DNA from: Styela clava
Lineage: Eukaryota > Chordata > Ascidiacea > Stolidobranchia > Styelidae
Assembly (NCBI RefSeq): GCF_964204865.1
Contig: NC_135263.1
Location: 6,078,501 to 6,142,500, forward strand
Direction: 5' to 3'
DNA length: 64,000 nt
How positions within the stretch are numbered: the stretch's first letter is position 1; every line of letters begins with the position of its first letter. Below the pieces are notes generated by a model, which searched no databases, was not told the origin of the DNA, and was given only the letters and a program-made list of their open reading frames with translations. Below are positions 15,352 through 47,101 of the stretch, piece after piece. Both the position numbers and the translations under genes were made by a program.

Positions 15352-15687
15352 TAATTATCATAATATAAACGGTATAGCTTTTCCATGCCAATAACTAGTG
15401 AAAGTAAACATTGCGATTTTCAAAATTTCACTGCTTGGCTTCGAAATCAAAACTGCAAGCCTGTGTGAGGATCAGGTCCCACAATTTCAAATGTAAAGCA
15501 GTCACGTTAACTTGAACACATTGGTATAGATCAGGGGTGGCCAACACGTCGATGGCAATCGATCACCTCGCTGAAATGATCGATCGCACCTGATTTTAAG
15601 TCAACTTCATTAACAGCATGCTAAAAAAATTGTCTTCAACTATAATTCACGCAGCGACCGCTGATTTCTAAAAAGAGGAATACGTAC

Positions 15688-25491: not shown

Positions 25492-27477
25492 TCATATGTA
25501 TCGATGTACAGTTACATAGTCTGAAAAGGAAATGACTCTCTTTCTACCAGTCTGTAATGAGTCTTGGGATTCGCAACAGCTTTCTCCGTCATCATGCCAT
25601 TCCTTTATAGTTTCATGGCTCTCGCTGACCGGTGTAGGGTCATCGTTTTCGTCATCAGAAACTTCGGATAATCTTCGTATTCGTGGCACTTTAGGTGACA
25701 ATAGTACTTCCTTTGGTTTTTCTCGACTTCTCAAAGATTTTGACTTTTTTCTTTTGGACTTGCTTGAATATTTGTCTGCAATGGAACGGGAGACATATGA
25801 ATAATAAATAACTCAGAACATACAGAGAAATATGCAAAACATGGTTGTCTAACATTGTTTTATTACTAGTATATTTTTGAATGAAAAAAAAAGAAATGTG
25901 CGCGAAACCACGGCAAGTCTGAACATGGGAAAAATTAAATTAAAAACACAACAATTAGTTATGTTGTCAAAAAGTCACACTGAAAATTCATAAACACAAC
26001 TTTTTCACTAAATTTGGTACAAAAATTTCAACTTGTGCCTATAGCCGTATAGTTATTATATCCTAAAGCAGGGCTACTCAACTATTTTTATCGAAGGTCC
26101 GCAAACAAAACTTCAAAATTATTTGGGTCCGGTCTTTCCAGAAATGATATTTCGGCATCCTTAAACGAGAACTTCCTCGACCGACTAATGATTAGTAGGA
26201 AATTAAAATTGTTTATTATGGTGTTATAGTTCTTTTCGTATATATTCAAAACTATGAAAGTCATTTTATAATAGGAAATCCAAAAAGTGGGGCTAATGAT
26301 CCAAAATAAATAATTAGGTGCGGTCCAAATCCAATACTCGAAAGGTCCGGATTCGGACCGCGGTCCGCCAGTTGAGTAGCCCTGTCCTAAAGTATGCTCA
26401 AACTATTTTCACTCAAAAGTTTATGTTAAATATCGTTGTTATTGTTATCAATAAGATAGGTTTTAAAAAAGTTTGGAATGTTACATTTAAAATCGTCCGA
26501 AAGCAAAAATACAAGCCCGTGCCAACTCGTAGTTTATACCACGAAAACGCGTACATGACTCGCTGCAGCACCGATATCAGTGCTATGAATATTAGCGGAA
26601 AGATTACGTATCGTTGTGAATTACATCGTGTCAAATCAACTAATCCAACCCTCCCTAAGGCAGCACATTTTGGTTAATCAGATGACACTGTTTGCTATCA
26701 ATCAGATGGATTCATAGACAACAGCATGCCGAATATTCCCGCGGAATAAAAATTAAATGTTTCATAAATTTGCTCAAATTACGCTGACAATCACAGCATC
26801 AGCAATTTCTGAACCACAATCCAAATTGAATCCGTTTATTACAAATTGTAGACTAGTTCCAAACCCGCCTGGCCTTAGACAGCTTCAGATGGGAAAGGTC
26901 GATGGTATATTGATCAAAAATTTTATCACTTTAAAATATCATTTTCCCCTACATAGAAATACCGAAACGTGCAGTAGCTAACTAAATTTAGGTTTTCTCA
27001 TTCGAAGGAATTAATCAAACGTCGACGTGAGATCAATATGTTGGTGTGCATTTTAAAATTGCGTATTATTTCATAATGACTATAAACTGCGATTTTTTGC
27101 AAAGTTATTTGCACAATTACATTTATTTAAGCGCGTCGTTGCCGAATGATTGCAAACATACAAAGTCTTCAACGATAAAAAAAAGTCAAGACGACTTCGA
27201 ACAGGCAATATCACATATATATATATATGCCTACACAAATATGATATCAAAGTGTTTGAATTATTTTTAATACCGATAATGTTACACTTTTGATCCGCTT
27301 CAGAATTTTTGACCACTGATATCTTCAATGCCCATGTTCTGGGCAACACCTCGCAATTCACCCTTCATTGGGCTATTCTCTAATATAGTATATATACAAA
27401 ACTGATATGAACTTACCGCCGAAGGATGGTCTGTTATGAAAACGCCAAATTCCCATTGCTGAAAAGATATCCACCAT
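25492..27477 (-). CDS. gene A: small basic protein with GADD34-like C-terminal PP1-docking motif
   Basis: Two exons, 27477-27417 (donor GTAAGT) and 25775-25492 (acceptor TTGCAG), join in phase 1 to give 114 residues. The N-terminus is short (MVDIFSAMGIW...). A Lys/Ser/Arg-rich stretch (KYSSKSKRKKSKSLRSR) and an acidic stretch (SDDENDD) follow. The protein ends RKRVISFSDYVTVHRYI. The tail R-x-[VI]-x-F followed by S-D-x-V-x-V-H resembles the PP1-binding segment of PPP1R15 proteins (known: RVxF, then hydrophobic V-x-V-H). Unlike genes B-D it lacks the DPRD motif, so it is the most diverged member. A TATAAG box lies 87 bp upstream of the ATG. Function beyond possible phosphatase docking is unknown. 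Exon 2 is well supported by its relatives; exon 1 rests on phase and the TATA position. Confidence 0.6.
26069..26384. mobile_element. 316-bp hAT MITE in the intron of gene A
   Basis: The ends CAGGGCTACTCAACT and AGTTGAGTAGCCCTG are perfect inverted repeats. A perfect 8-bp duplication, tcctaaag, flanks it (26061-26068, 26385-26392). It is clearly related to 50616-50914 and 39373-39567. Confidence 0.9.
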
Positions 27478-27558
27478 TGTTGTAGATAATAACGCGCTGG
27501 TATAGTACTGTATATCCAAACTGGTACTGAATTAATGCTGACGCAGGTCAACAACTTT

Positions 27559-27564
27559 CTTATA
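27559..27564 (-). promoter_or_regulatory. TATA box of gene A
   Basis: TATAAG on the minus strand begins 87 bp before the predicted ATG of gene A. Gene C has its TATA box at the same distance, and gene B at 95 bp. Confidence 0.5.
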
Positions 27565-27569
27565 AGTGT

Positions 27570-30500
27570 CGATGCTCGCTAGCCTGCTGGCAAACTTTTT
27601 TCGTTTGGTAACTGTTACGGCGTAGCTGATCGAACTCAACGCACTGTCAAAACATGTAGAGACGATTATGAAAGCATCGGGCGTCGTTCCTGCTTATAAT
27701 GCGGCTTGGCTCATATTGCGTTCGCGTCTGTCTGAAAACAACGAAATACTGTTTAACAAAGAGTAGTGACGTTATGTTGCCCGAAGCTTAAAACGCTCAT
27801 TCCTATCAGGGTGTTACATGTTCACCCACGGACAAAGACTATAATGCGCCTTCAACGCGTGTCCACACTGGACCCATGCCAATAAAACAAGACTGTAATT
27901 TGCAGAAACATAATGGATGGTTTTGGGTTTCGGTAAATATGCTTTCGATTATGATCGATGTCGGTTTATTAAGATCTTGCCATGGTTTCAATACCTTGAT
28001 CGGTTGCACACAAAGCGACTTGTTGTAACTTTATTTTGCTCGCAAGGGATATTTACTTTGCGCCTGCTGAATGAAAACAGCTCAATTAAATATATATTCA
28101 GTGCGATTAAATATTGACTTCTAGGGGCGTGCCATCCTGTCCCAAAATATTTGTAACTGAGGAAAATTTATATGAGGCGCTAGAAGTCATTCTTAAATTA
28201 TAAACCGTTTTTATGCAAAAGAAATCAAAATTTGGCAATGTGCTTTAGAATTGATAGGTTTGTGTATTTGTTTGCCCACCGCACATATTTATATGTACTA
28301 CATCACTTCTCATCTTAGTCTGGCGGCTTTGTTCACTGATATTTCGTGAGCTTCCGAACGAAAAAAGTCGATTTCTGGTGGCTTACGTCAGTAGCCTATA
28401 TTTTTGTTCTCTGGTAACGCAGCGAGTGAAAATATGATACATTATCTTGTCTATGACGCGCGCACGATGTGAAATACCCGCGATTTGAACAATTTTAAGG
28501 TCCAATTCATAGGAAAATTATGTGTTCATTTATCCACGGGAAACAGTAGCCAATTTACTCTCACACTTAGTCAAGACTATTTTCGATAGCGCAGTTTATT
28601 AATCAGAAATTCTGATTTTGTGGCGTAGTTTAAGCCTCTCGATTAAAAAACAACGTGTGTATTGTACGATAGCATGTCCACAATACCAATACACCATTAC
28701 TCCAGGGTTGGTTACGCTGAAGGTATACGCTTGGAGATAGGAATAAATTAACCTCTTCAATATGGCAAATTCCCACGAGTTGGGCTTGTGTAACGCAAAC
28801 CATTTCCGGAAAATTATAATCTATTCTAGCTACAAGTAGTAAACGACAATCGTACTTGTACTATTTTCCTGAAACAAATTTGTTCAAGTATAGAGAAACA
28901 CGTTTCATGTAATAATATAACCAATTTATTGTAATTATTTTGTTTACGCATTTCCTTTCTCATTCACCTGAAATGTTCGCCGGCGGCAAAGTCGTTCTAA
29001 CTCAAAGTTCTCAGAACGCCGAACTTGCGAGTTTCACATTTCGCGCTTTATCAAAGACTTTTTACCAGTTACTCACCTAAAATTTAGTATGATAACTGGT
29101 ATGTGCTCGCTATTACAACCGTAATGTTACTTATATTTTAATATGACGAATTTGATTAGTATAATTGTCAAACATGGACCGACGTAACTTCATCGGCTTT
29201 ATGACACAACGCCAAAACTTCACATGATTGGTTGAAAACTACCAATGGGTATGTTAAACAAAATTGTTTGTACTGTTAAATGTTTGCAAATCTTATGTTA
29301 TTTTATAGCAGACTCGCGTACGGCTATCAAGATCTGGTTACATACTGCACTACTAAAACGCGCATTATTTGAATTACAGCTTTGAACTTTCAGCGTCATT
29401 GCCCGAGCGAGTATGCGAAACCGTATAGGATGTCATGTTGACTATTTTGCGTCGCCCGAGAGAGCTAAACAAAGTCCAGCTATGGTATAACAAAGACTGA
29501 TTGTTTTTCCCTGCAGTTGTTTATTCCGATTATTATTGTGCTACGCTATACGATAAATCAAATATTATTGTTTGATCATAGTTAGAAGCTGTTGTTTCAT
29601 CGTCCAGCATGATTCATAGTATGAGCATACGCGGTAAGTATATCAACACTTTGGGTGTTTGCTCGTGGTTTCGATGACGTCACAGTACATCAATACGGAT
29701 ATTTGTGGTTTAAGAACTCAGTTCATACTGCGGGGTACGCAGGATAAAAACGTCAAGTACTGATAAAAATCATTAATTACAGTAAAATTTTACAGGTAGG
29801 TGTAGGAATGGTAATATAGTACTAATCGACGCTTGAATGCCCTCTTTGAAGCAGGTTTGAATTTTGGAGCAGCTGTACACAAAAAGTGGTCAATACCACA
29901 AAATATTTTTGAGTCATAGACTGATCGCGTTACGGTGATACTATATATTATTGAACAATACTAGAACCTATTTGGTACAACAATAATTGGGGACCAAATC
30001 GATACTTAATGTATGTATAAATAAACAACCAGTGAAAGCGCAATAACTATTAAACATACCTAATCATTCTCAATATGTCATTGAAGCTCAATGACTAATC
30101 TACCAATATGATGATTGTTTTTATACAGCTTACAGCCTCGAGTAATGATTTCATTCAACTCTCACGATTTTTATACGAAGATGATGTTCTTTAAAATTCT
30201 AAATCTCGTTTATAGTTGTTCCAAACGTCGACCACCAGTGTGAAAAATTAACTGGTATAAGAAAATTGATATCTCTAGCATACCCAGGTTTAATTTTTTA
30301 CTTAACAACGAAGCAATGAAGCACAAAAAAAATGGAAATAAATACCACTGGGAGCAACAAGGAAGCAATATGAAAAATAAATGAAATTGGTAATTAAACT
30401 GAGAATGCATTTAATCTGAAAAATATATTGAAAAAGCATTTAATGTTTCCAGCATACATTGCATCAAACACAGTTCTTTGCGATGTATAAGCGAATATGG

Positions 30501-30930
30501 GTAACGTGGTATCGCTCAAATGTGAATTTTCTTGGTATTTCACACATATTTGGGTGACACATATCGTGAGGTTTACAGCTGCATTTACCATGCCTAATGG
30601 ATACCACATGTTTTTTGGTACATTTAATTTAGCAACAAACAACTAATTTGTAATTATGTTGGGGTTAGAGGCAGTGGACCTCACTCTAGATAGTCGATAT
30701 ATAACAGTAGCACTCATTTTTAGATACTTAATTTGCCCTGAACCCCAAAAAATAATCCTGAACCGGAAATTTCATTTATCTGAAACTCCAAACAAAATAA
30801 ATAGTGCTGATCAACATTCTCAGTGCGCCCACACGAGAATCCGATCTGCTAAGGTGTATAGAAAGTTCTCAGGCACATTTTCCGTAAAGCTCAATGGTTC
30901 ACAATATCACTTCCGAAGGAAATAGAATGG
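27570..30930. other. intergenic stretch between genes A and B
   Basis: No gene is recognised. It contains a TGACGTCA palindrome at 29675-29682 in a 24-bp context that reappears inverted at 35067-35090. The remaining sequence shows no clear repeat ends. Confidence 0.5.
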
Positions 30931-30932
30931 AT

Positions 30933-33688
30933 CTAATATCGATGAACAATAACATATTCTGAAAATGTTATCGTAGTGGTTTTTACTGGAACATCACAAT
31001 ATTGCTTTCTTTTATCTGAAGTTTGATTATACTTTTCTGTTCTATATTGTTTGGTGGTTGTTCGCAGCAACTTTGAGGTCGTATGTTTACGGACAGCAGT
31101 ATTGTCTCTAGGGTCAAATACTCTACGCGATGAACTCATAGGCGTTTTGTTTCTTTTTTCCGCTACATCTCTTGGATCTGCAATTCGTAGGATTCGGTGT
31201 TTTGCTGAGTCGTTGTGGTGTCGACGACAATTTTCTAAAAGATATAATTAGGGTAAACTTAAAATTTAACCAATTCCATATGAAAGACTGTGAATAAAAT
31301 AAAAAGACAAGAAAAATTGTTTTCGACAAATTCTTAGATCCTGTTTCCTAAATATCTAATTAATTAAGTTAAATTTTTATTCATCTCATATGAACTTTGC
31401 AAATGGGAAGACCAAAACAAATTGTCGGCAAATAAAGTGCCTTTAAATACGAATTTTTACACCCCGTATTGCAACTAGACATGTATCGGGTATCGGTATC
31501 GGCAATATCGGCCATTTTTTCGGTATCGATCATATATCGGTATCGGCTGAAATAATACCGATATTTCCGATATATTTATTTACCTTTTTAATATGATCCA
31601 GAATGTTTTAAAAGATAAGTTAAAATATTACTTTTTAATTAATTTTTTGTCTGGAGAGATCCTGAACTATGGGCCATGCATATCCCCACCCCCGCGAGTA
31701 GTAACGGGAATAGGATTCACCTGTTTTTAAATATTTACTAGCCAAACTAGCTCAACTAATTTGGCTATTTTCGCTGCCAAATTTTTATATTGACATTTTA
31801 ATATTACATACTATACATAGTAATTATGAAGAAATATATCAACACAGCCCAGAAAAATGAGCAACTAGGCGCCCAGTTTTAAATCATACAGTGGAATCGG
31901 AGTTCTTTTTTACAGCACATGCACTTTTTGGCACTGCTATAAATTCTGACTATTTATCGTCAAGCGCAAGTGTTATTTAGTCCGTCGACGTCGTTAAACT
32001 AAATCCAACACAATCATTCCCCTACGCAGGTATTAAATAGTGTGATTTCAGTAATTTTTAATTTCGTTAAAAAACACAATTTCTCCATTGATTTATTGGC
32101 GTGGCGGCCTAAATTGTCTCAAGATATACGATAGTAATTGTGAAATATTATAAAATAGTAAAATAAAAAACATTCTCGACGTATTATAGGTACTTCTAGT
32201 CGGCGCTGATTGATATCCTATTATTTTGACTGTAATTTATTGCCGCGACGATTACGATTAGACACAAAATAAAATATTTTAAAAATGCTTTAAATTAAAA
32301 CGTAGGACGGGGGGCGCTAGAATGCGTGGGCGATATTCGTTATTCTTTTAAACACGAAAAACGATATTCGAATGTCACGATATTAATATTAAATTGAAAT
32401 TGCACATCCCGGCCTATAAGTTTTCTAATTGAACACCGAGATTACTAGCGTCGGTGCACAACGAATCTGAACCAATTAATGCATCTGGATACCAAACATC
32501 AATTTCATATTATGTGATATATTTCTTTTTCAATCTGAAATATTGTGTACTATGAATAATGCTCAAATACCATTGTTTTAACCCGTCTGCCCTACACAGC
32601 ACACTTAATTAGGGTAATAATTACTAAATGTCTAATTTATTATTTTACAATATTAAAATGACGAACAAAAACTTGACCATTACAAAATGCGACTTCAGTT
32701 GCCTTATTTCAGATTCATAAATATCACAACGAAATCTACTTTTCTATCCTTGAAGCACTCGTTCCATTTTTTAATATTAAATGAATTAACCATTTCAAAT
32801 AATTCATTTGTATATGTTTATTTTGAACAATTGATGCACAACTGTTGCTTAATTACTAAACTCAATGCTTCCAAGTGAATGTTCGTTATTTAGATTTGGG
32901 CGAACAATGAAATTTTATCGATGCTCAGCTTTGTATAAATTGTTTCGAAACCAAGCAAGAGTAGTCGGCTATAGTATTATTACTAATAGATTACCTGTAG
33001 CATTCATCTCCGAGATTGCTTGAAGTTTTTTTTAGCACAAAATGTTTTGCTAGCAAATTTCTTTAGCACTGACTTGTTTGATAGAAATTTTCAGTTCCAG
33101 TTTTCCCCCATCATATACTGATAATAAAGTTTTGTGCATTCCAGCGTCATTTATATAAAAAACTTATTTGTGGTCGCTAGGTAGGAGTGAAAACATTGGT
33201 AACTAACAATGTTGACTGTTCAGACGCTAACAATGTTTAGACATTCAGGAAATGAGAAAGTGGGTGGGCCAATTGTGACAACTAAATTCGTCAGATTGTC
33301 ACGTTCGCCGAACTCATATTTTACAACTTGTAAAAATTGTAACGTAAATGCAGAATGCTACGGTATACGTCTGCTGTCCGGCATGTTTATTGAACTATCA
33401 TATGATGTACCGGTAGCTAATCTTGGATACATGACAATATATATCATATAAAGATTTTTTTTGTAATCATGACCTCCCAATACATACCATTGCAAAGCTA
33501 TATTGTGTTAGTTAGAGAAAGACTATCTACAGATAGGTTTCAAAACAGAAAAGCATTGCTTCGTTTCTCTTTAAAGGCTAATATCTATTATAAGTAGACA
33601 GCCTCTTACCTTTTAGAAGTTTGGATAAGTTGAAGATATTTGTAGAAGTGATAAAGTTCTTTAAAAGTTTTCGATTATTTAACAACAT
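30933..33688 (-). CDS. gene B: small basic protein with DPRD motifs and GADD34-like tail
   Basis: Exons 33688-33610 (donor GTAAGA) and 31234-30933 (acceptor TATCTTTTAG) join in phase 1, giving 126 residues. The N-terminal exon reads MLLNNRKLLKNF.... Exon 2 carries LRIADPRDVAEKR, then a second RRVFDPRD, a basic Thr/Lys-rich middle, and the end TTTITFSEYVIVHRY. The first DPRD block matches gene C (LRIADPRDLADNR) and gene D (LRISDPRDVAEFR). The tail matches all three relatives. In B the usual basic residue four before the Phe is Thr, which would weaken a canonical RVxF site. A TATATTTA box starts 95 bp upstream of the ATG. The intron is 2.4 kb. No known family beyond the tail similarity comes to mind. 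Confidence 0.6.
31476..31620 (+). repeat. end of a GATACC-rich hAT-type element
   Basis: TAGACATGTATCGGGTATCGG resembles the reverse complement of the right end of the MITE at 47103-47302. Alternating TATCGG units follow for about 100 bp. The matching second terminus was not found with confidence. Confidence 0.4.
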
Positions 33689-33775
33689 TGTTTTGAGCTA
33701 GACCGGATAACAAACAATTACAGACCGGACAGAGTCTACCGACAAGTCAAAAGCGTAAGGAGAAAAAACCACATC

Positions 33776-33783
33776 TAAATATA
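33776..33783 (-). promoter_or_regulatory. TATA box of gene B
   Basis: CTATATTTAG on the minus strand lies 95 bp upstream of the predicted ATG, close to the spacing in genes A and C. Confidence 0.45.
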
Positions 33784-33789
33784 GATGAG

Positions 33790-36150
33790 AAAACATCAGA
33801 GTGATGCGACAAAATAAACCGTAACCAGGTGACGTGTACAAGGCAAAAATTTATTTGGCAAAACATTAGACATCGCAATAGTCTAATAAGCACATTATTT
33901 GACATGGACCGATTAAGACTGTCTTTATACGATCCTGTACAAAAATGGTTAACAAATTGATGAGATACCACGAAATAACAAGAGAGCAATATAAACGAGA
34001 AAACCATCTATCTATCTCTACCGGCGCCACAAAGATTTGCCCTTTACCAGCGGTAAAAAAGGGAATATTCTATGTGTTTTAATCCATTTGAGACAATAAA
34101 AATTGTAAACTAATAGAAAATTTGCCCCACCGGCGTTAACTGCTATAGGTACGGACATTCAAACGAAAAATTTCTTTATGAACCGAATCATAATAATTGG
34201 AAATAATTTTCTTTGATTATAATATAAGTAAGTCACAATCTATTTTACAGTGACCTATGAGTAAGCTTCATTTAGGAATGGTGATGCCATAAAATAATAA
34301 ATAAAAAAACTATAATAAAAGTTGAAAGGCATAAACTTATATTAGTCATATACTGTACTCAGACTCTGAGTAAGAGCAAAGAAAACTTCAAATGTCAAGA
34401 TCTAGTGCTAATTCAACATATGATGGATAGATAATTCATTCGTACCACAAACAATTTTTAAAGAGTATTAGCACCAATACATTTAACAATATAATCTAAA
34501 TGTTGCTAGTTCCAATCTACAATTCAGATTAATCAGCCTAAAATTTCCCAGAACAATCCTTATTTATTCCTCCAGCTTGAGAGAAAAGTTTATTTTAATT
34601 TTATGAAATTCCTATTATAACAAAAACAATCGGATAATTAACAATAATAATGAAATAATAGTAGCATGAAAGCATAGGAGGTTTGGTTGCTGCTTAACGA
34701 ATGGTGTTCCGAATATATTGATTTTCGAATAAGAATTGAAATCAGAAACAATAATAATAATGAACTAGACTTAGAGAATGAATGAAGTTTGAAAAAAGTA
34801 ATTTTTATAATTGCATCAAATGCATAATCTGTTACGAATGAGGAACAATACCAGTTGTATGGTGATCATTTACTCCTAATATTGGAATTCAACCCGAAGC
34901 CTTTCCCGGTAAACGCCGGAATTCATCCAAAACAAGAGCTTTTATGTGACGACGTATTTGCAAAACTTCTAAACATTTCAAGTATAGTCAAATAAAACTG
35001 AGCAAAATTATATGTGCCCACATATTACGACTTTGGAAAGGCTGTAAACGCCAGGAAATGATGGCGTATTGTGACGTCATCGAAACTACAATCACACACT
35101 CCAGTAACGATTTGTTTAATTATGTCATGTCAAGTGTGATCTTTCCATGAATCATGATTTCATGAAAACGAATTATTCTTAAACAAATTCAAACAATATT
35201 ATATACTGAGGGAAACATGAGTCACACTCAAACACGAAATGTTTTTGCTCCAACATCCTGTCTGCTATTTTGTGGAATGGAATGGATTCAACTACGAGAA
35301 TTTCACCATTATTTAGGTTTTTGAGTCGTTGTTGTTATTGAGACATTCATCGCTTTTCTTTTCAATCAGTGAATAAATGACTTTTGAGATGTTCTGTGGT
35401 TAAGAACGGAAACTAATTTCATCTCAAGTTTTGAGATTTGATTTCACTGAGAACTTCAATATATTACTTCACTTACTCCTGCGTTTTGTGGAGGGAAACC
35501 TTCAGACCCATTTAATGTATTAAAATGAAAGTATTGAAATTGCTTGATAATCACAGCAAACTTCATTTTATATTTATATACTGGATTGTCTACCTCAAGT
35601 GACAAAATTTGATCTGAGCGATTAAATCAAAAATTTACCCAGTATCTAATGTATCTAATTTTTCATATATATGATATTATTTTACGGAAAACTTTTCTAA
35701 ACCCCTTGATTGATTTCTACTATCATTATTTACAAATTGTTTCGGAAATAGTCTCATCTAAAGGTAATCAAATTTTCAATAACAAAATATGAAGAATCAC
35801 AATAAATGACTTTAGCAATAAAACTTTTGGAGAAGACCCTTTTCGATCAGCACTCCTATACCCTGCTGCCATAAAAGAATTATATTGCATCTTTAAGTGT
35901 TTTACTTTATTTGATTCATAAAATAATTTAAAAATATATAAAAACAATAAATATATGACTGAACGAATAAGACAGCCTGAGCTAGGTAGAATAAAGAAAC
36001 AAATTGCAATAAATGAGTATAAAACGGTCATTCAAGTGTTTTCCCCAACTTACTGCAAAAATGATAATATTGATGATGAGTTATTGTAAAATAAAAGTTC
36101 AATTGATGAACTCATTTTTGCATAACGAATTTTCTTTTGCAAACTGAGAA
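33790..36150. other. intergenic stretch between genes B and C
   Basis: No gene is recognised. A TGACGTCA palindrome at 35072-35079 sits in a 24-bp block that is an inverted near-copy (22 of 24) of 29665-29688. Confidence 0.5.
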
Positions 36151-36152
36151 TT

Positions 36153-36661
36153 TTAATATCTATGAACCACGACATATTCTGAGAAAGTTATGGCTCTTTT
36201 TCTAGATTGCAAATTGAAACTTTTTTTTGTATCAGGGGGAGGCGAAGAGCACTCGGCAGCTGTTGACTCAAACTTTGGTGAAGTCGTTTTTGGCAATTTT
36301 GAAGATGTACGATAAGAATTGTGGAAAGCTCTATGGTCCCGAGGATCAGATACTTTGATGAACGTTCTTGTTGCATTTTCTTTTCGTCGCCTTCTGTTGT
36401 CTGCCAGATCTCTGGGATCTGCGATTCTTAACATTTTTGGCTTTGAAATATTTCGCTTTTCTTTGAGACTTTCTGGATAAAAGAAAATTGTACAGAATGT
36501 AAAATAAATTCTGAAATCTATTCAACCATAAAACAAAAAAGGAAAATGGAATTAATAACCAATTTTATATCAAAATTACCTTGAAATTTTCTATCGTTGT
36601 TTAAATGAATTTCTTCAGCGCACTGATATGTCGCCAAAACTTTTGTCCAGCCTTGTTTCAT
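36153..36661 (-). CDS. gene C: small basic protein with two DPRD motifs and GADD34-like tail
   Basis: Exons 36661-36580 (donor GTAATT) and 36472-36153 (acceptor TTTATCCAG) join in phase 1, giving 133 residues; the intron is only 107 bp. The start reads MKQGWTKVLATYQ. Exon 2 contains LRIADPRDLADNRRRRKE, then IKVSDPRD, a Ser/Pro-rich part (SSPPPD), and ends RKRAITFSEYVVVHRY. This is the most compact and best-supported member. R-x-I-x-F fits the RVxF consensus for protein phosphatase 1, followed by S-E-x-V-x-V-H as in PPP1R15. A canonical TATAAATA starts 87 bp upstream of the ATG. The many Arg/Lys residues suggest a nuclear or nucleic-acid-associated protein, but this is inference. It is third in the tandem A-B-C set. 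Confidence 0.65.
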
Positions 36662-36740
36662 TAGCACAATTTTCTTCAGTAACACAGGACAAGAGTACAG
36701 GAAGCTTTTACTGTTATGGGTATCGCATCACTGTTGGCAC

Positions 36741-36748
36741 TATTTATA
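36741..36748 (-). promoter_or_regulatory. TATA box of gene C
   Basis: GGTATAAATAG on the minus strand is a textbook TATA box 87 bp upstream of the predicted ATG. Confidence 0.65.
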
Positions 36749-36759
36749 CCACAAATGTG

Positions 36760-38078: not shown

Positions 38079-38086
38079 AGGAAAAG

Positions 38087-38581
38087 CAGTGGCGTAGCAA
38101 GACTCTCGTGGGCCCCCCGCAAAAATATTTCGTGGAAATGACCCTAAAAACTCTCGGACATAAGCTAAAACAACGCTTTTTTATTTTGTCAAAAAGCATA
38201 ACATGTCGCCATAAAAAGGTAGTGGTAACCTAAAATTTGCAGTTTATCTTAGTTACTTTATTTTTTTCGTATCTTCTTCCTCTTCTGCCCTTTTTCTGCG
38301 TTTCTGTGCGCCACTGAGAGGTTTTGCCTTCGACATCATTCTGACAGCCTTCGTATTTTGCCGGTGCGATCAAACCACAAGACGCCGAAAATCGACGACT
38401 CCTTAGCATTGTTACGTAACAAAACGATTTGAGCAGAACTGACATCAACGTTATAAGATGTGCAGTACTTGTTTTGCACTGCAGCATTTGGTTTGCGGCC
38501 TAAATTTTCAAATTCTAACCGCTTGGGCCCCTTTGCGCTGTGGGCCCTCCCGCGACCGCGGGGGTATATGCTACGCCACTG
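38087..38581. mobile_element. 495-bp non-autonomous hAT element
   Basis: The ends are CAGTGGCGTAGCAAGAC and GCTACGCCACTG. A perfect 8-bp duplication, aggaaaag, flanks it (38079-38086, 38582-38589). The terminal sequence is shared with the nested element at 15688-16271, and each has a G/C-run just inside the ends. No transposase motif is visible. Confidence 0.85.
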
Positions 38582-39372
38582 AGGAAAAGACTATCCCATT
38601 TTCTATAGAGAATGACATTGTTATTCTGCACTGGTTCGGTATCGATATAAAATATACATGCTTTGATCTACAAGAGTAACTTATTTTTTGACTTCAGGAC
38701 AAGGCTTCACACCTGTTATGGACTAGAATGTTTGTAGGAATGACACTTTTCCCGATCGACATAGTCTGCCCAAGTTGGAAAATAAAGTGTGATTTGCTGT
38801 TTGGAACTGACTGACTGCGCTATAACAAGTTAACCACAAGATCATCCCGTTTGTTTCCTTGGACTGATTTTTTTTGTTCATATATATTTTTATCCCATTA
38901 TTATGGACGTTCCAATAGTCTCATTTTTATGCAATAATTTGCATTAGTTCATTTTAATACGTACAAAATGCTCGCAAAGTTCGTAAAACCCTCGGAAAAT
39001 ACCGTGTACTACGAAGTCATACAATGGTGTACTTTATCATTGCAAAATTTTGGTGACCGTACATTTGAACCCATGTATATATCCGCGGGTTTAATCTATA
39101 TGCAAGTGCTTAAACCCATGGGTTAGGGTTAGTATGGGTTCAAATATCCGTAAAACAAAAATCAATTTCCATAGGTGCAATAGTATGCAGATGTAATTGT
39201 CGTGGGTTCAAATGTAATGGTACCCAAAATTTTATTTCCTTATTCTAGGAGTGGTTTCGCGAGTTGGCGCTAATAAACCGGTTTATATGTTTTAAAAATT
39301 TGAACCATCTTTTTGATTCAAAACATTCAACAACCTGTCATCTGAATGTACTAGTTGAAAAATTTAGCCTAG

Positions 39373-39567
39373 TCCAGGGCTACTTAACTGGCGGACCGCG
39401 TCCGAATCCGGACCTTTCGAGTATTTGATTCGAACCTAATTTTTTTTATTTTAGATCATTAGCCATACTTTTGAAGTTTCCTTTTATAAAATTACTTTTA
39501 TAGTTTTGAATATATATATATATATATATATATGAAAAGAATTGTAACACCACCATAACGGTAATAA
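39373..39567 (-). mobile_element. truncated hAT MITE, family of 26069-26384
   Basis: It begins CAGGGCTACTTAACTGGCGG, is inverted relative to the copy at 26069, and includes GGTCCGGATTCGGAC-type sequence on the other strand. An (AT)n run at about 39510-39533 lies inside. The other terminus is missing; the LTR element starts shortly after. Confidence 0.65.
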
Positions 39568-39603
39568 AGCAGTGTGCAAAAGATTTAGTTGAGAGTATGA
39601 TAT

Positions 39604-41702
39604 TGTAGCAAGTACATAAGGATAGTTACTGTGTATTTTAATATTTTCACCACTTATTGTTAGTAGTGCATGTTATTTGCCTGAAACAAGGTCGTTATCC
39701 CAATTCATTTCCTTTATGATATATTTTTCTCGCTCAGTGTAGCTTGTCTTTGCCGTTCTTTGTTAGTTAGAAATTTGGTTTCATCACATATACTTGCTTT
39801 AAGGTTTCAAGTGTAATTCGTTATTTGGATCAATTCGATTGTGCAACTTTACAATATAACAATTGGCATTCAATACACTGTGTGCTTTTTGACCTCTGAA
39901 GGAGTCAAGATCGGAGTTACACTCTGTTAGCGTGTGTTTAATAACACGGGAGTGTGGACACGCAGATAGGGTCGAATCTTTGTTGCCCTATATTTTGGTG
40001 ATACCCGTTCGTGATCAATAAGCAATCAACTTCAATTCAGCAACTGGAATTTCGTCAATCAAAATGGAAAAGAAATTCATCACTAATCGAGTCAATGGAC
40101 AATACGTCAGCATTTCAGGAATCAAGCAACCAACCAAATTGCAGTCTTTGGCGGTATGTCAATTTATAAAGCAGTCAAGAAGGCCAGAACAAGGTAGATT
40201 TTTGACTCAAAACGAGGAATCTGGACCAGGACCTCCTACGATCAGACAGCACTAACTCAACTTCAACTCTTCAAGTTTAACGTCCGAGTTCACGCTCGTG
40301 TATTTTCATTTTCCAAGCATCAACGCCCAAATTCTTTGAATTTGTGTCTCATTATCAACCTATATATTACAACTATATGTTTTGTGTGTCAACCGGATCA
40401 GGAGATATGGACTTCAGCAGATCAATTCGCCTCATTACAATTTAAAGTTACCAGGACAACTTCATATTATTACTGGATTTTCAAATGTGTTTATCGACAA
40501 AGCAAGCTACGCCGGAAAAAACATTGATATTATACGCAAGCCGATTTTTTTACACCAAGAAGCAGCATTTAGCGACCTATTGTTTGACGAACGTACGAAC
40601 GAACATCTACTTTATTCTCTCAAGTCGATCATCATCTATTTCAGCATCATTGGAAACCAAGTCGAAAACCAATACTCGTGGCCCGCGTTAAAGGGTCCTC
40701 TCTACTTCAATCACATAACACGAAAACTTCAATCTCCCCTAGCTGATTTAAGCCAATGCTCACCCAATTCCGTGTTTTGCCGGAAAGGTGCGTTTACATT
40801 TGTCTGGAACGTTGATGATACGAAAGTTTGCACGGCCGGCAACTCTCCGAAATTCAACGCTACCACACTCTTGTTACATTTCAATCCATCGGACAATCTT
40901 CCCAGATTGAAAAATCCGAGAGTTGGACAGGATTTCAAAGCTTAGAAGAATGTTTTCAACGAACGAAATCTTAACGTCAACAATATTCTTCAAATCAACT
41001 ACTACGCTCATTATTTTACAAAACAGAAAGAAGTCGATTGTCCAAACGCAATGGCTTAGTTCTGGGTGTTATCGAAGATTTCGTGAAAATCTGTAGATTT
41101 CACCGCAAAAGATCCTTCAACCGGAGGTATCTCAATCAAATTGGTTTTCCTGTGTCGTTGCATTAGTTGGTCATCAGCGACTTTGATGCAGAATTAAATA
41201 CACCAATACATGGCAAATTTTACGACATATTATTCAATCAGAAATCGTTATTAGCTAGTCTTACAAAATTTAAAAATTAGCAAACTAATTTTTTTCATTG
41301 TCGGGGGGAATTGTGTAGCACGTACATAAGGATAGTTACTGTGTATTTTAATATTTTCACCACTTATTGTTAGTAGTGCATGTTATTTGCCTGAAACAAG
41401 GTCGTTGTCCCAATTCATTTCCTTTATGATATATTTTTCTCGCTCAGTGTAGCTTGTCTTTGCCGTTCTTTGTTAGTTAGAAATTTGGTTTCATCACATA
41501 TACTTGCTTTAAGGTTTCAAGTGTAATTCGTTATTTGGATCAATTCGATTGTGCAACTTTACAATATAACAATTGGCATTCAATACATTGTGTGCTTTTT
41601 GACCTCTGAAGGAGTCAAGATCGGAGTTACACTCTGTTAACGTGTGTTTAATAACACGGGAGCGTGGACACGCAGATAGGGTCGAATCTTTGTTGCCCTA
41701 TA
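39604..41702 (+). mobile_element. young LTR retrotransposon lacking pol
   Basis: Two 389-bp direct repeats, 39604-39992 and 41314-41702, start TGTAGCA and end GTTGCCCTA(TA). By eye they differ at five positions (about 1.3%) with no indels, so the insertion is recent. A candidate primer-binding site, TGGTGATACCCGTTCG, begins at 39996. A purine tract, GGGGGGAA, precedes the 3' LTR. Flanks share ATAT (39600-39603, 41703-41706), a possible short target duplication. The 1.3-kb interior has no protease, reverse transcriptase, RNase H or integrase motif, so the copy depends on other elements to move. The superfamily cannot be assigned. Confidence 0.85.
40382..40945 (+). CDS. ORF of unknown function inside the LTR element
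   Basis: It has 187 codons from ATG to TAG and fills much of the element interior. It includes patches such as LHQEAAFSDLLFDERTNEHL and QCSPNSVFCRKGAFTFVWN. I see no zinc knuckle, protease DTG/DSG or reverse transcriptase YxDD. It may be a gag-like remnant or captured sequence. A second ORF (40064-40255) precedes it in a different frame (MEKKFITNRVNGQYV). Whether either is translated is unknown. Confidence 0.35.
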   Translation: MCVNRIRRYGLQQINSPHYNLKLPGQLHIITGFSNVFIDKASYAGKNIDIIRKPIFLHQEAAFSDLLFDERTNEHLLYSLKSIIIYFSIIGNQVENQYSWPALKGPLYFNHITRKLQSPLADLSQCSPNSVFCRKGAFTFVWNVDDTKVCTAGNSPKFNATTLLLHFNPSDNLPRLKNPRVGQDFKA

Positions 41703-41777
41703 ATATGCAAAAATTATGTTTGCAGCATAGAGGCGAGCGACATGGCAGAGTATTGCCAAAATGAAATTAATTAATTG

Positions 41778-41992
41778 CAGTGGTTTATCTACGTAAAATG
41801 GCGCCCATGGCAAAGTTTAAAAATGCCCCCCCTCGATCATTTAATGGAAATTTTTAACGACTGTTGTTGAAATTGAGATACTTGTACGTTATTATTCTAG
41901 TAAAAATACGAGTTTAAATTATTTCCAATTTGAAATTATATTATTGAAACATTTTTACGATCTTTACTTTTCGCTCTTTTTGCGCCCCAATC
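41778..41992 (-). mobile_element. hAT MITE, inverted relative of 1776-2024
   Basis: CAGTGGTTTATCTACGTAAAATGGCGCCCATGGC is read here in parts: CAGTGGTTTATCTACG, AAAATGGCGCCCATGG and CGTTATTATTCTAGTAAAAA each match the reverse complement of the 1776 element. The other end diverges after TTTTTGCGCCCC, where transposase-like sequence begins. Confidence 0.65.
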
Positions 41993-42450
41993 CAAACGGC
42001 ACCCAAAACTCGGCCATTCACTGCTTTTTGCATCGACATGCCCTGGCAGCGAAGCGCATGCTTTCTGATTTAGCTGAAGTGATGGTAGATGTGACAGGAC
42101 TGCAACTTGAGTCATCACTTACAAAGATCTTACTTCATCTAATGGGAAAAGATATTCTTCCTAAAGCAAATGAATGTACTTTCCTCACACAAAAAAGACG
42201 TCGTTTTAGGCCGCGAGCCGAGGCCCTGAAAAACGCCTAGAAAGTGAGTTTCGTAGCGCACATCAGGAAACTACCTGAAAATGATGATAAAATGTTCCTT
42301 AAAAATTTAGTAACAAATATTGCCTTGTTCCCACTTCCAAAAGTTGCACGTTTTACGGAAAAGACGTTTTTACTACAAAAAATATGTGCTACGATCTGTC
42401 CTATATTCTCTACATTTCCGGCAATGAACAATGACTTCAGCATGACGTAA
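41993..42450 (+). pseudogene. hAT (ZBED5/SCAND3-like) transposase fragment
   Basis: The frame reads IHCFLHRHALAAKRMLSDLAEV, which resembles the conserved C-x-(I/L)-H-R-x-A-L-A motif of ZBED5/SCAND3-type hAT transposases. Stops and frame changes follow. The next stretch (KMFLKNLVTNIALFPLPK) may be more of the same gene. The apparent N-terminus comes from the neighbouring MITE. A diverged direct repeat of 42210-42275 recurs at 42636-42700. Confidence 0.5.
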
Positions 42451-43317
42451 CAATTGAATCGAATCAGCTGTTAGCGAGCGGATGAATCTTAGTTATTACT
42501 GCTCGATCTTGCGTTGAGTTAGGCAGCCTTTCCATAGCCCCGTTTAGTTGTTATTATTAGTTAAGTTATGCTAAGACGTTGTTAAAAAGTATAAGTAAGT
42601 TATTAAACACTTGTAGATCCTTATCACGGATATGGGCCGTGAGACGAAGCCTTTAAAACGCCCATGAAATGAGTTTCGTAGCACACATCTGGTAACTAAA
42701 TAAATTCTTCAGTTGTGTGTGAAAATGAACATTCTGAACGCATTACAGCTTGTTCCACAATCCTGATGCGAAATTGAATATAAGAGGTTCCCGGATATTC
42801 AATAACCATAACGTTTACAAACATACATAAGAACTATGCAATTCGAGAGCCCTACAGCACACTAACACAAATGTATTCCTGTAATGTTTTGCCTGAACAA
42901 AATCAGACTTCCTCAGTCAATCAGAATTTATTAGGTAGATTACGAAAAATAGGGCATACATGTCGCGAGTGACCTCGAAAGGTCTTCAAGCAGCGACACC
43001 AACAACGCTGATTCACATTAGCGAATAAATTTATGTAATAACCACAAGCAGTTTACAACAAGCACAGCATAAAAAGCTACATCCATTTTATAGAAGCTAT
43101 CAAACGTATTTATTTTTAAGCAATGAAGTCACAAATTAACATCGTGAGCACGAAAACACAAATAAATCGGGTATTTCCCACTTAGAAATTTGACGGAAAA
43201 GTCAAGAAAATTAAATGAATGTACATAACATATTAAACAGAAATATTACAATTAGTCTTTTTTTAGTTTATGTGGTTATGTATTTGAACAAAGGCAATAT
43301 TATTTCTAGAAACAGGA

Positions 43318-43995
43318 CTACGACACTAACAAATGTCCGAAATAAAACAAATAAATGATACTTAATAAATCAACCTCAATATCTAATTCACTTTCTTCTG
43401 AATTGTTTTCGAAATCCACTATCTCGAAAATCGACTTTTTCTCTATAAGTGTACTGCGATTTTTGCAGTCAATGCAAAAACAAAAATCTGTGCAATTTAA
43501 TTTGATTTTGGCACACTCGCATAAATTATTTTGACTATTTTTCTTACACTTGCAGTTTGCCAACTAAAGAACTGATTTGAGGGCCACATGCTTTTTCAGT
43601 GAATCACGGTTGGGTGGACTGTATAATCCTTATGTTTGCCAGTGTTAAATAGACGTGTCCTGGTATCAATTACATTCTTCATATCCTCTTCATACAGTGA
43701 ACAAAAATATTCCACAGCTTTATTTATTAATGCCTCGTTAACCTCAAAAGAGCTTCATAGTTGAGAAAAAAATGAATTGAAAACCTCAATGAAGTCTCCA
43801 ACATGAGTTTGATGGGCAGTTCCAATTGCAGAAAAGTGCTAAAGTATTTTAATATGAATAGCCCATCTAAGCTGTTTGCAACTATTATGATTCTCATATA
43901 CCTTTACGCTTCAAGACTTCTTGTTTAATCCATTTTATAGCACTGATATCAGCAGGGATTAGAGCCTGCGTTAGGTCGGATTGGTGGAACATTGC
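43318..43995 (-). pseudogene. decayed repetitive gene with Cys-rich (CxC-like) C-terminus
   Basis: The Cys-rich block NCKCKKNSQNNLCECAKIKL...CTDFCFCIDCKN (43455-43563) follows the C-x-C-K-K...C-x-C...C-T-x-x-C-x-C...C-x-N pattern. From memory, that pattern ends a large multicopy, transposon-like family in tunicates and cnidarians. Upstream on the same strand, in other frames with stops, are VNEALINKAVEYFCSLYEED, a Cys-Leu-Tyr segment seen in the same family, and ADISAIKWIKQEVLKRK. Frame breaks between pieces mean this copy is dead, unless several short introns are real. Confidence 0.5.
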
Positions 43996-44049
43996 CATTT
44001 TCTTTTGTAGTACAGTATCTAAAATGAGGAAGAAAATCATATTTGGAAC

Positions 44050-45310
44050 ATCATGAGTGTAAAAATACCACTAAATACTAACTAATACCTTGAATACATA
44101 ATGTATTTTATCTGATGTACTCAATGAGCGTATATGTGCTCATTGCATGTACTACAGTCCAGCAGTGTTTGCATACCATTACTAGACTATATCTACACTA
44201 AATTTTGATATAGACTATTACAGTCTGAAATGCCCTATGACAGTATGAGTATGGACTACGGTATAGACTATATTTTAAAACATCTTTCCACCCCGGCAGA
44301 ACTTATCATTGCTTCGCAGGTTCTTGTCGACTCTATGAATTTAGATTTAGACCAGTAATAGGTAAAGATGCCATATTTGGGTCATACAAGTTAATTGAGG
44401 TCTAGTTTATGTCGAAAAAATTTCGTCACGGTTGAGTGATCACGGGCCCTAAAATTAATAAAACTTGATTCCCATTGGGGGTGATCAGTTTCTAACCTGG
44501 TATTTAAACTATTTAATGAACTAAAAAGGTCGGGGGCACTGCGCCGGACGAATGCCGCCATTCATCCGGCGCAACGACCAGGGTCTTCCAACAAAATCAG
44601 AACAAACACCTACTTTTTACCTTACTAAACACATTTCTTTACATTTCCCCCCGCGGGTAGCGAAGCGACCGACCCCTGGATTGCTGTAAATGAGATGTGC
44701 ACATTCTAATTGGCATTGTTGTATTTTCATGTGCAGATATTGTTACTATTTCTTTAATGAAAAGGGGATGTAAGATGATATTTATGACGTACGTCATTAT
44801 TAATGCTTGATGTCAGTGTTGAGCTTCCTTGCTGTACTGTATGCTGCTTAGTGCTTTGATTTATGATGTCCATACTCAAGCACTCCCGACCAGTTGTGTG
44901 TTTACTCACAAACAAACACGGTTCACGTTGGGTATAGGATTACAGATGCATGGACTTTTGTTTTCGACTTCTTCATAACGGTTATAAATTAGCCTACTTA
45001 CAAACAGCCCCTATGTGCTGTTTTCCATGTTGTCCACATTTTAGAGTTGAAAATTATCTCGTTCATAATATAAACATTAGTCACGCATAATATGCTTTCA
45101 TAGTGCAAAGTTCTCAATAACAACAAGAGAGCAATGCTTGAATTCCAATACACGAAGATCGCTATCGGTACGGCAATATAAGGTCTTAGCTGAGCACCGG
45201 AGTCGAGCTTCTTTCATCGTCAAGTATTGAAACCGATAAACAACATGGCCTAGTTTTGCTGTGAGTGTGCAGCAGAATTTTGTATCAAATCAATCTTGAA
45301 ATGGTTTTTT
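44050..45310. other. stretch without a recognised gene; contains a GC-rich palindrome
   Basis: Apart from the hairpin at 44541-44572 I see only AT-rich sequence with no coding signature. Confidence 0.5.
44541..44572. repeat. GC-rich inverted repeat (hairpin)
   Basis: GCGCCGGACGAATG pairs with CATTCATCCGGCGC across a four-base loop (one mismatch). It stands out in an AT-rich context. No flanking duplication was found, so it may be a transposon remnant or a structured RNA stem. Confidence 0.6.
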
Positions 45311-45316
45311 GAAGTC

Positions 45317-45500
45317 GCTCCAGAAGTGTGTGTGCCAATATGGAGGTAACTAGTTTTGTTCGCACACTTTGCATCAAATTGTGTAAAATTAAAGGGACGG
45401 AAATCTATGGGCAGGAGGTATATTCAGTATTATTCACTTCATAGTCCCCGAACTTGTAATAGAACTAAATTAAGGAAAATCGGAATAAAATACCTACCTG
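45317..45500. mobile_element. MITE copy, same family as 6418-6618
   Basis: CAGAAGTGTGTGTGCCAATA opens the copy and the order of internal blocks is conserved. It has small insertions relative to the copy at 18258 (for example AATTAAAGGGACGG). Confidence 0.7.
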
Positions 45501-46167
45501 TTCGAATACGTTCTGATATCAAGTACATGAGAATGATTCAATTTGCTGTGCATTCACATCACATTAGATGTATATGCATATTGAGCTAGCTTTATATGGC
45601 ATAATATGTATTATGTATATATATGTATATACATTTAAGTTGAATGTATTGTATATCTATTATTTTGACCGTATACGCAGAAGAACTTACTATATCATGA
45701 CTAACGTAAAAAGGTTAGAATGAGTTTGAGCCAAAATCAAACAAATACGAACATAAAACTTTTTCGAAAACACAAACACGAATACATGTTTGCTTGCTTG
45801 GAAAATGCCATTCTACTAAATAGTAACCTTATACCATGTTTATTCAAACAATACTATTTATTAAGTAGGATTCGAGACAGAGTGATTTATTAATCGATTT
45901 GGCGAAGGAATAATTCGAATACGTTGACCAACAGTCTGTTAAACATTAATAACGCTCCCTTTTATACAATGGGAATGCAGCCTTGTTTTATTTCCAGTTT
46001 TACAATGTGTTTCTGTCAACATGAAATTTATCGCTTTGTGGACCGCAGCCATTATGAATCAAACAAACAACATAGCTGATAACTGGATTAGTTCAAAATA
46101 AGCTTAGTAAATCTAAATATTTTGTATAACTTTGGAATTGAGTAGTGAACATTGAATAACGTTGAAA

Positions 46168-47101
46168 ATGGAAAAGACTAAAAGTGAGTAAAGTTCTTAA
46201 ATAATGGCTGTATAAATATTTACGACTGTTCTGTAACGATCCCAAGGATTGCGAAAAACAAATAACTTGACTGTGATGAAATCGAATACAAACAGACAGT
46301 ATGTGACGATACCCACTCTATTCAAAAGCTTCGTCATTATTTAGCCGCATAGGATACTATATTAATTTTAAACGCGAAACCTAATTGTCTGGAAGAGCAG
46401 TATGAGGTCAGAGACTCGTTCCGACCGACCTCACAAAGTCTCGTTCCGACCGATGTTTATGGCAAATGCATATTTCAGTCAAGTGTTCCCGAAGCCACGA
46501 GTAGAAGTCTCGAAGCCACAAATCGAGACACGGGTCGACCATTATGCCAAAGTTCGTTGGTATTTTGTGCATGTAGGCTAATTTGTGAATTTTGCTGAAG
46601 ACTTCAAGCTGGGGTTGGAAAATACTGTAAAGAGCATAACCGGCATTGTCCGAGCAATAAGATCAAATGGCAACTAATACATCTATATGTTCCATTTCAG
46701 CAGTATCAAAACAACAACAACAGCAGAAATCCGAGCAGAAAAAAATAAAGCCACGATTCTTAAGAATATCAGACCCAAGAGATGTTGCGGAGTTCAGAAA
46801 GAAGAAAAGTGAACAAAGAAGAGCTTCTAGAAGAGCTAGTGATTCTAAAGTTGACAAACCAAACAAATGTACACAAACTAAAGAAACGGATATTTCAGAA
46901 GTCACACAGACATTTAATGCTATAAAACTTTCAACACTTGAAAATGTGGCAAAAGATGCGAACATTATAAATGATGATGACGTTTTTTCTTCAGAAACAA
47001 TAGAAAAGACTGAAACCAACGTCAGTGTGAGAAAAACGGGGAGTGTAACCAGATCTAGATCTATAAAATTTTCAGATTCCATTGAAGTACACAGGTATTG
47101 A
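46168..47101 (+). CDS. gene D: basic protein with DPRD motif and GADD34-like tail
   Basis: The main exon 46701-47101 follows a TTTCAG acceptor in phase 1, as in genes A-C. A candidate first exon is 46168-46183 (MEKTK, donor GTGAGT, phase 1), giving 138 residues. Alternatively the ATG at 46667 could start an unspliced form of 144 residues. The protein has a Gln run (QQQQQ), LRISDPRDVAEFRKKK, Arg/Ser-rich SEQRRASRRASD, a long acidic/Thr-rich middle, and ends SRSIKFSDSIEVHRY. R-x-I-x-F then S-D-x-I-x-V-H keeps the phosphatase-docking pattern. It is on the opposite strand and 9.5 kb from gene C, separated by the repeat block. The stop codon abuts a hAT MITE. Confidence 0.65.

What the first reader, a model, noticed from the sequence alone, without database searches (positions are those of the whole stretch)
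25492..47101. Undescribed four-member family of small basic proteins ending in a GADD34-like PP1-docking tail
Genes A, B, C and D end VISFSDYVTVHRYI, TITFSEYVIVHRY, AITFSEYVVVHRY and SIKFSDSIEVHRY. Seen: the shared F-S-[DE]-x-[VI]-x-V-H-R-Y at or one residue from the C-terminus. Known: PPP1R15A/B bind protein phosphatase 1 through an RVxF motif followed by S-x-x-V-x-V-H. Inference: these are compact PP1 recruiters, perhaps with the DPRD-rich basic part as a targeting module. A PP1 docking segment at the extreme C-terminus, without the eIF2alpha/actin-binding part of PPP1R15, would be a new arrangement.
Basis: partly seen in the sequence, partly recalled or inferred. Interest (0 to 1): 0.88.

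Follow-up and report, generated by a model that had tools for sequence, protein, structure and literature searches.

The report
Sea-squirt proteins with phosphatase-docking tails
A sea squirt carries four neighbouring genes for small, probably unstructured proteins that all end in a segment resembling the hook other proteins use to grab protein phosphatase 1, so they may be a local, fast-changing set of phosphatase helpers whose binding has not yet been tested.

Summary
In Styela clava (the tunicate this window comes from), four paralogous genes within 22 kb encode proteins of 104-138 aa. Each corresponds to a public S. clava protein record, and they share one layout: a short first coding exon, a phase-1 intron, then one exon ending in I-x-F-S-[DE]-x-[VI]-x-V-H-R-Y at, or one residue from, the C-terminus. 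The tails look selected: synonymous sites are near saturation, amino-acid changes few. Searches of the genome found no further copy, and three protein searches found no relative in another species. The tail profile against PDB sequences returns five hits; four are PP1-docking segments in register (three Phactr, one PPP1R15A/GADD34). No E-value is significant alone (0.051-0.89); the reversed profile gives one hit (E 0.3), not a PP1 regulator by name. So PP1 docking is the best reading, but 'GADD34-like' is too narrow: Phactr matches better. The RVxF and phi-phi positions are present; the Arg and Trp motifs and the actin-binding part are absent, because the protein ends there. Gene B lacks the basic residue of the RVxF consensus. 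AlphaFold of D alone gives low confidence overall, highest around the DPRD block and the tail. PP1 binding is inferred, not shown.

The parts
25492..25775 (-). gene A, exon 2 (coding, ends RKRVISFSDYVTVHRYI-stop)
   Evidence: record P0004
27417..27477 (-). gene A, exon 1 coding part (MVDIFSAMGIWRFHNRPSFG + G), donor GTAAGT, phase 1, intron 1641 nt
   Evidence: matches P0004
30933..31234 (-). gene B, exon 2 (two DPRD, ends TTTITFSEYVIVHRY-stop)
   Evidence: record P0003
32995..33007 (-). gene B, exon 1 coding part (MNAT + G), phase 1, intron 1760 nt
   Evidence: matches P0003
36153..36472 (-). gene C, exon 2 (two DPRD, ends RKRAITFSEYVVVHRY-stop)
   Evidence: record P0002
36580..36661 (-). gene C, exon 1 coding part (MKQGWTKVLATYQCAEEIHLNNDRKFQ + G), phase 1, intron 107 nt
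   Evidence: matches P0002
46168..46183 (+). gene D, exon 1 coding part (MEKTK + A), donor GTGAGT, phase 1, intron 517 nt
   Evidence: matches P0001
46701..47101 (+). gene D, exon 2 (one DPRD, ends RSRSIKFSDSIEVHRY-stop)
   Evidence: record P0001
25498..25539 (-). tail of A: RVxF-like R-V-I-S-F, then S-D-Y-V-T-V-H-R-Y (one further I before the stop)
30936..30977 (-). tail of B: T-T-I-T-F (no basic residue in the RVxF place), then S-E-Y-V-I-V-H-R-Y
36156..36197 (-). tail of C: R-A-I-T-F, then S-E-Y-V-V-V-H-R-Y
47057..47098 (+). tail of D: R-S-I-K-F, then S-D-S-I-E-V-H-R-Y
36408..36419 (-). DPRD block 1 of C (LRIADPRDLADNRRRR)
36336..36347 (-). DPRD block 2 of C (IKVSDPRD)
31167..31178 (-). DPRD block 1 of B (LRIADPRDVAEKR)
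31104..31115 (-). DPRD block 2 of B (RRVFDPRD)
46772..46783 (+). DPRD block of D (LRISDPRDVAEFRKKK)

Best explanation
The four genes are a tandemly duplicated, fast-evolving family of probably disordered PP1-interacting proteins. The C-terminal strand docks on PP1: I and F of I-x-F fill the RVxF pocket; V-x-V-H-x-Y runs on as a beta strand along PP1, with H (F+7) and Y (F+9) at the phi-phi positions; and the chain ends there. PP1's Arg and Trp contact sites and its active site are left free. The divergent front part, with the LRI[AS]DPRD block in three of the four, would carry PP1 to a substrate or place. Shown: genes, shared gene structure, conserved tail, selection on it, in-register likeness to known docking segments, absence of anything after the phi-phi positions. 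Inferred: binding to PP1, recruitment, the role of the front part.
For: Tail profile against 177,635 distinct PDB sequences: 4 of 5 hits are PP1 docking segments, each aligned F to F (Phactr chains 6zef_C, 6zee_W, 4b1z_M; PPP1R15A chain 4xpn_B); the reversed profile gives one hit, not a PP1 regulator by its name. A and C are identical to PPP1R15A at 7 of 14 tail positions, B at 6, D at 5. PMC4394352 (passages) places PPP1R15B V641 and F643 in the RVxF crevices and Y650 and I652 (F+7, F+9) at the phi-phi site; the family has H and Y there. PMC7599070 (section 7) reports that Phactr1's segment just after its RVxF adds a strand to PP1. Last 14 shared codons: pS 0.60-1.05, pN 0.12-0.28 in all 6 pairs. 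AlphaFold2 of D: mean pLDDT 58.9 and pTM 0.17, with the highest ten-residue blocks at 21-30 (73) and 121-138 (75, 81). A, C and D fit [RK]x(0,1)[VI]{P}[FW].
Against: No E-value is significant by itself (0.051 to 0.89); one of the five hits is an adenosine kinase (0.25), and the reversed control reaches E 0.3, within the same range. Single tails (C, A) and the full-length profile find no PP1 regulator in the PDB. B lacks the basic residue of the RVxF consensus, and the narrower form with V fixed fits 0 of 4. No relative outside S. clava. No binding, complex structure or expression data could be obtained.
Confidence: 0.57

Rival explanations
1. The proteins bind PP1 through the same tail but act mainly as inhibitors or decoys: small disordered proteins that hold the RVxF/phi-phi site and keep other regulators off, without bringing a substrate of their own.
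For: The proteins are short (104-138 aa), with no Pfam domain above cut-off and, for D, no confident fold; the tail is the best conserved part common to all four.
Against: In B, C and D a second block (LRI[AS]DPRD) is conserved as well, which a pure decoy would not need. I made no search for a pseudosubstrate or active-site motif.
Confidence: 0.17
2. The resemblance to PP1 docking segments is coincidence; the conserved tail binds some other partner or is a C-terminal signal of another kind.
For: The motif is short, the PDB E-values are weak and the reversed control reaches a similar E-value, B has T-T-I-T-F without a basic residue, and V-H-R-Y, the most invariant part, goes beyond what RVxF needs.
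Against: Of the three distinct protein families that the profile hits, two are PP1 regulators, and in docking register; the reversed profile hits none by name.
Confidence: 0.22
3. The genes are shrunken descendants of a Phactr or PPP1R15 gene that kept only the docking segment.
For: The tail shares F-S-D-Y-V-x-V with Phactr1 and F-S-E-x-V-x-V-H with PPP1R15A.
Against: The S. clava Phactr-like locus (G000:C19:9825374-9825499) reads [27 protein letters not shown], by eye further from the tails than the Phactr1 of the PDB. No RPEL or PPP1R15 match in Pfam in the four proteins.
Confidence: 0.06

Closest known systems
Phactr1 (phosphatase and actin regulator), PP1-binding segment RKILIRFSDYVEV
   Same: Best profile match in the PDB: basic residues, I-x-F, F-S-D-Y-V-x-V in register; its PP1-binding sequence too lies in the C-terminal part (PMC7599070 passages).
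   Different: Phactr1 continues with Arg and Trp motifs and a helix at the hydrophobic groove of PP1 (PMC7599070) and has RPEL actin motifs; the four proteins stop after the phi-phi positions and match no RPEL model.
PPP1R15A/GADD34 and PPP1R15B/CReP core
   Same: Same spacing of I/V-x-F and V-x-V-H; 5 to 7 of 14 tail positions identical to PPP1R15A, 1 to 4 to PPP1R15B.
   Different: No Arg motif, no Trp motif, no actin-binding part after the tail. Whether S. clava has its own PPP1R15 could not be settled.
PP1-interacting proteins with RVxF plus phi-phi docking in general (spinophilin and PNUTS as named in PMC4394352; NIPP1 from recall)
   Same: Regulator that docks by a short linear segment along the same path on PP1.
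   Different: Here the segment is the extreme C-terminus of a small protein; no likeness elsewhere was found.

Membership tests
PPP1R15 (GADD34/CReP) | RVxF followed by strand with phi-phi positions at F+7 and F+9 | tested here: met
   Gapless register; positions from PMC4394352 passages. By sequence only; B departs in the basic residue.
PPP1R15 (GADD34/CReP) | Arg motif and Trp motif after the phi-phi site | tested here: not met
   The proteins end 9 (B, C, D) or 10 (A) residues after the Phe.
PPP1R15 (GADD34/CReP) | Actin/eIF2alpha-binding C-terminal half of the core; Pfam match | tested here: not met
   Nothing follows the tail; no PPP1R15 model among Pfam matches at E up to 10.
Phactr | RPEL motifs | tested here: not met
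   No RPEL model among Pfam matches at E up to 10 (HMMER's filters drop most matches above about 0.1).
Phactr | RVxF-phi-phi-Arg-Trp string with C-terminal helix | tested here: not met
   Only the first two elements are present; the Phactr-like locus found in this genome is on another contig.
PP1-interacting proteins docking by RVxF | Regular expression [RK]x(0,1)[VI]{P}[FW] (recalled) | tested here: inconclusive
   3 of 4 (A, C, D) match, B does not; a narrower recalled form with V fixed matches 0 of 4.
PP1-interacting proteins docking by RVxF | Direct binding to PP1 lost on replacing the Phe | not testable with these tools
   Needs protein or a two-chain model; the structure tool takes one chain from the window or from relatives.
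PP1-interacting proteins docking by RVxF | Intrinsic disorder of the docking region in the free protein | tested here: inconclusive
   D only (1 of 4 proteins, 4-row alignment): mean pLDDT 58.9, pTM 0.17, no strand or helix in the tail, but the tail has the highest pLDDT of the chain, 75-81.

The most novel reading that the evidence does not exclude
A tunicate-lineage family of PP1 recruiters that ends exactly at the phi-phi site. It would be a minimal C-terminal docking strand that leaves the Arg, Trp and active-site grooves of PP1 free, joined to quickly changing front parts, so that one cluster of duplicated genes yields four different PP1 holoenzymes in one animal. In A, B and C the x of I-x-F is Ser or Thr (Lys in D), so docking could be switched by phosphorylation in three of the four.
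Probability: 0.35. Interest if true: 0.6.

Novelty: new member of a known kind. Interest (0 to 1): 0.48.

Why it matters
PP1 gets its specificity from many partner proteins that dock by short segments, and how new partners arise is, to my knowledge, little understood. A four-gene cluster in which one docking tail is held fixed while the rest diverges, apparently in one lineage, would be a natural experiment on how new PP1 regulators are made. It would also test whether RVxF plus phi-phi alone, at a free C-terminus, is enough for a working regulator.

Tried and rejected
A fifth member: FSEAVKVH at 10016-10039 (+) has the short pattern F[ST]..[VI].[VI]H, but it lies just beside the antisense of a glycine-receptor-like exon frame (10043-10357), scores only E 0.26 with the tail profile, and the short pattern is expected 0.53 times by chance; rejected. 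Four compact single-exon genes: rejected, as the protein records show a first exon in each. Strict SILK motif in the LR block ([GS]IL[RK], recalled; compared by eye): K-M-L-R, R-I-L-R, R-F-L-R and K-S-L-R are near but none fits; left as a lead. PPP1R15 in this genome: the Pfam family search was silent in the 14 control genomes too and the protein query found nothing (no positive control); inconclusive. Whole-protein PDB search with D: nothing; with the full-length profile A1: 5 weak hits (Msh6, a zinc metallopeptidase, three V-ATPase subunit C chains; E 0.071 to 0.78), none a PP1 regulator. Literature: 0 papers with any of the four gene names and 0 with 'tunicate', 'PP1' and 'RVxF' together; five other searches were seen as listings and showed no title on these proteins; only this open-licence library was searched. 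PMC8500838 was seen in passages and not used further. C and A differ between the window and their records at 11 of 133 and 7 of 114 residues, none in the last 18; the chance of that is 0.19 and 0.29, jointly 0.055, with the length 18 chosen after looking, so it is only suggestive.
Full report
What is there. The window lies in a genome of 376,610,584 bases in 379 contigs (G000:C18:6078501-6142500). The matching protein records are named Styela clava, and two of them (B, D) come from a contig of 20,054,287 bases, the length of contig C18. Styela clava is a stolidobranch ascidian. The four reported tails are at the stated places.

Chance. F[ST][DE].[VI].VHR is found 4 times in six frames of the window and 0 times in 60 single-base shuffles; VHRY with at most two more residues before a stop is found 4 times, against a shuffle mean of 0.15.

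Gene models. A, B, C and D correspond to the public records P0004 (114 aa), P0003 (104), P0002 (133) and P0001 (138). With their help the first coding exons were placed in the window: 61, 13, 82 and 16 nt, each ending in phase 1, with introns of 1641, 1760, 107 and 517 nt, GT donors and AG acceptors. The same intron phase in all four, and the same kind of final exon, speak for one ancestral gene that was duplicated. A, B and C lie on the minus strand at roughly 5-kb steps, D on the plus strand 10 kb further. First exons of 13 and 16 nt would hardly be called without transcript evidence; that is inference, since the evidence behind the records could not be seen.

How many copies. Protein searches of the whole genome with D, C, B and A, and with a short D query, give only these four loci (at E up to 0.001, the others at E up to 10). 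The tool scores only its best candidates, so this is a lower bound. Three searches of 5.8 billion proteins give 4, 1 and 4 proteins at E up to 10, all S. clava, out of 515, 4 and 23 candidates. Candidates must share exact five-letter words, so distant relatives may be missed.

Conservation. Identity to C over the last exon is 39, 29 and 25% for B, D and A, but the tail keeps I, F, S, V, H, R, Y in all four. Over the last 14 shared codons, pS is 0.60 to 1.05 and pN 0.12 to 0.28 in all six pairs: old duplicates with a selected tail. Synonymous sites are near saturation, so no ratio is given. B, C and D also share LRI[AS]DPRD; A does not.

What the tail resembles. In the full-length records Pfam gives nothing at E up to 10 except a chance ribosomal-protein match in D (E 2.8; 0.56 with the stop-to-stop frame; both below its cut-off). 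The 20-column tail profile against all PDB sequences returned five: Phactr three times (E 0.051, 0.11, 0.24), an adenosine kinase (0.25), PPP1R15A (0.89). The four PP1-regulator hits align the family's I-x-F exactly on the RVxF of each. The reversed profile returned one hit, 'diphosphonucleotide phosphatase 1' at E 0.3, which from its name is not a PP1 regulator. None of these E-values is significant alone, and the control's lies in the same range; the weight lies in which proteins came up and in their register. Single tails as queries find nothing, and the full-length profile finds no PP1 regulator.

Docking geometry. PMC4394352 (passages) describes PPP1R15B with V641 and F643 of the RVxF motif in hydrophobic crevices, Y650 and I652 at the phi-phi site, R658 in the Arg site. 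Counting from the Phe, phi-phi is +7 and +9; the family has H at +7 and Y at +9 and ends there (A has one more residue). PMC7599070 (passages; section 7) reports that Phactr1's EVAD, five to eight residues after the Phe of LIRF, adds a strand to PP1, and that F522A costs about 650-fold in affinity, an Arg-motif change over 300-fold and W542A about 40-fold. By that scale the family's tail, lacking the Arg and Trp elements, should bind less tightly than Phactr1; this is inference. 3 of 4 tails meet the common RVxF expression, B does not; a narrower form meets none.

Structure. AlphaFold2 of D with the four-row alignment: mean pLDDT 58.9, pTM 0.17; two helices (31-47, 71-91); confidence is highest in 21-30 (73), just before and at the start of the DPRD block, and in the last 18 residues (75 and 81), which have no helix or strand. 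This fits a disordered protein with two motifs, but only one of the four was folded. Fold searches were not run because the model is of low confidence.

Not a Phactr. The genome has its own Phactr-like locus on another contig, reading [39 protein letters not shown], with RPEL-like, Arg and Trp parts by eye. PPP1R15 was not found, but the searches had no positive control.

Mechanism. Most likely the tail docks on PP1 and the varied front part chooses where the phosphatase goes. In A, B and C the x of I-x-F is Ser or Thr, a place where phosphorylation is known, from recall, to weaken RVxF docking, and in A and C an Arg lies three residues before it; D has Lys. A decoy or inhibitor role cannot be excluded.

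Surroundings. Pfam places a ligand-gated channel (glycine-receptor-like by eye) at 8.2-10.4 kb, a tRNA-binding domain (AIMP1-like by eye) at 53.2-54.1 kb and a weak GST C-terminal match (GSTCD-like by eye, below the Pfam cut-off) at 59.4-60.1 kb (10 chosen frames of the window were scanned). None bears on function.

Verdict. A real family of probable PP1-docking proteins, not described in the literature searched: a new member of a known kind. It is of moderate interest until binding and phylogenetic reach are tested. On checking, the confidence of the best explanation was lowered from 0.58 to 0.57, because the reversed control reaches an E-value inside the range of the real hits.

Noticed in passing
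window 8222-10357 (-): Exons of a Cys-loop ligand-gated channel, glycine-receptor-like by eye (Pfam Neur_chan_memb E 2.9e-21, Neur_chan_LBD E 1.3e-09).
   Followed up: partly
window 53205-54096 (+) and 59420-60139 (-): tRNA-binding domain exons (AIMP1-like by eye) and a weak GST C-terminal match (GSTCD-like by eye, below the Pfam cut-off); from recall, AIMP1 and GSTCD are also close together in human, so this may be old synteny.
   Followed up: no
window 12767-12849 (+): tRNA-Leu (CAG) by ARAGORN, and a tRNA match in Rfam.
   Followed up: no
window 39604-39992 and 41314-41702: 389-base direct repeat, 98.7% identical, 1.7 kb apart between genes C and D: a recent duplication or young element.
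   Followed up: no
window 15646-16017 (+): hAT transposase dimerisation domain match just at the Pfam cut-off (E 2e-4).
   Followed up: no
genes A (25492-27477) and C (36153-36661) against records P0004 and P0002: Proteins recorded for the same species differ from the window at 7 of 114 and 11 of 133 residues, high for one species: very polymorphic genes, two lineages, or other copies.
   Followed up: partly
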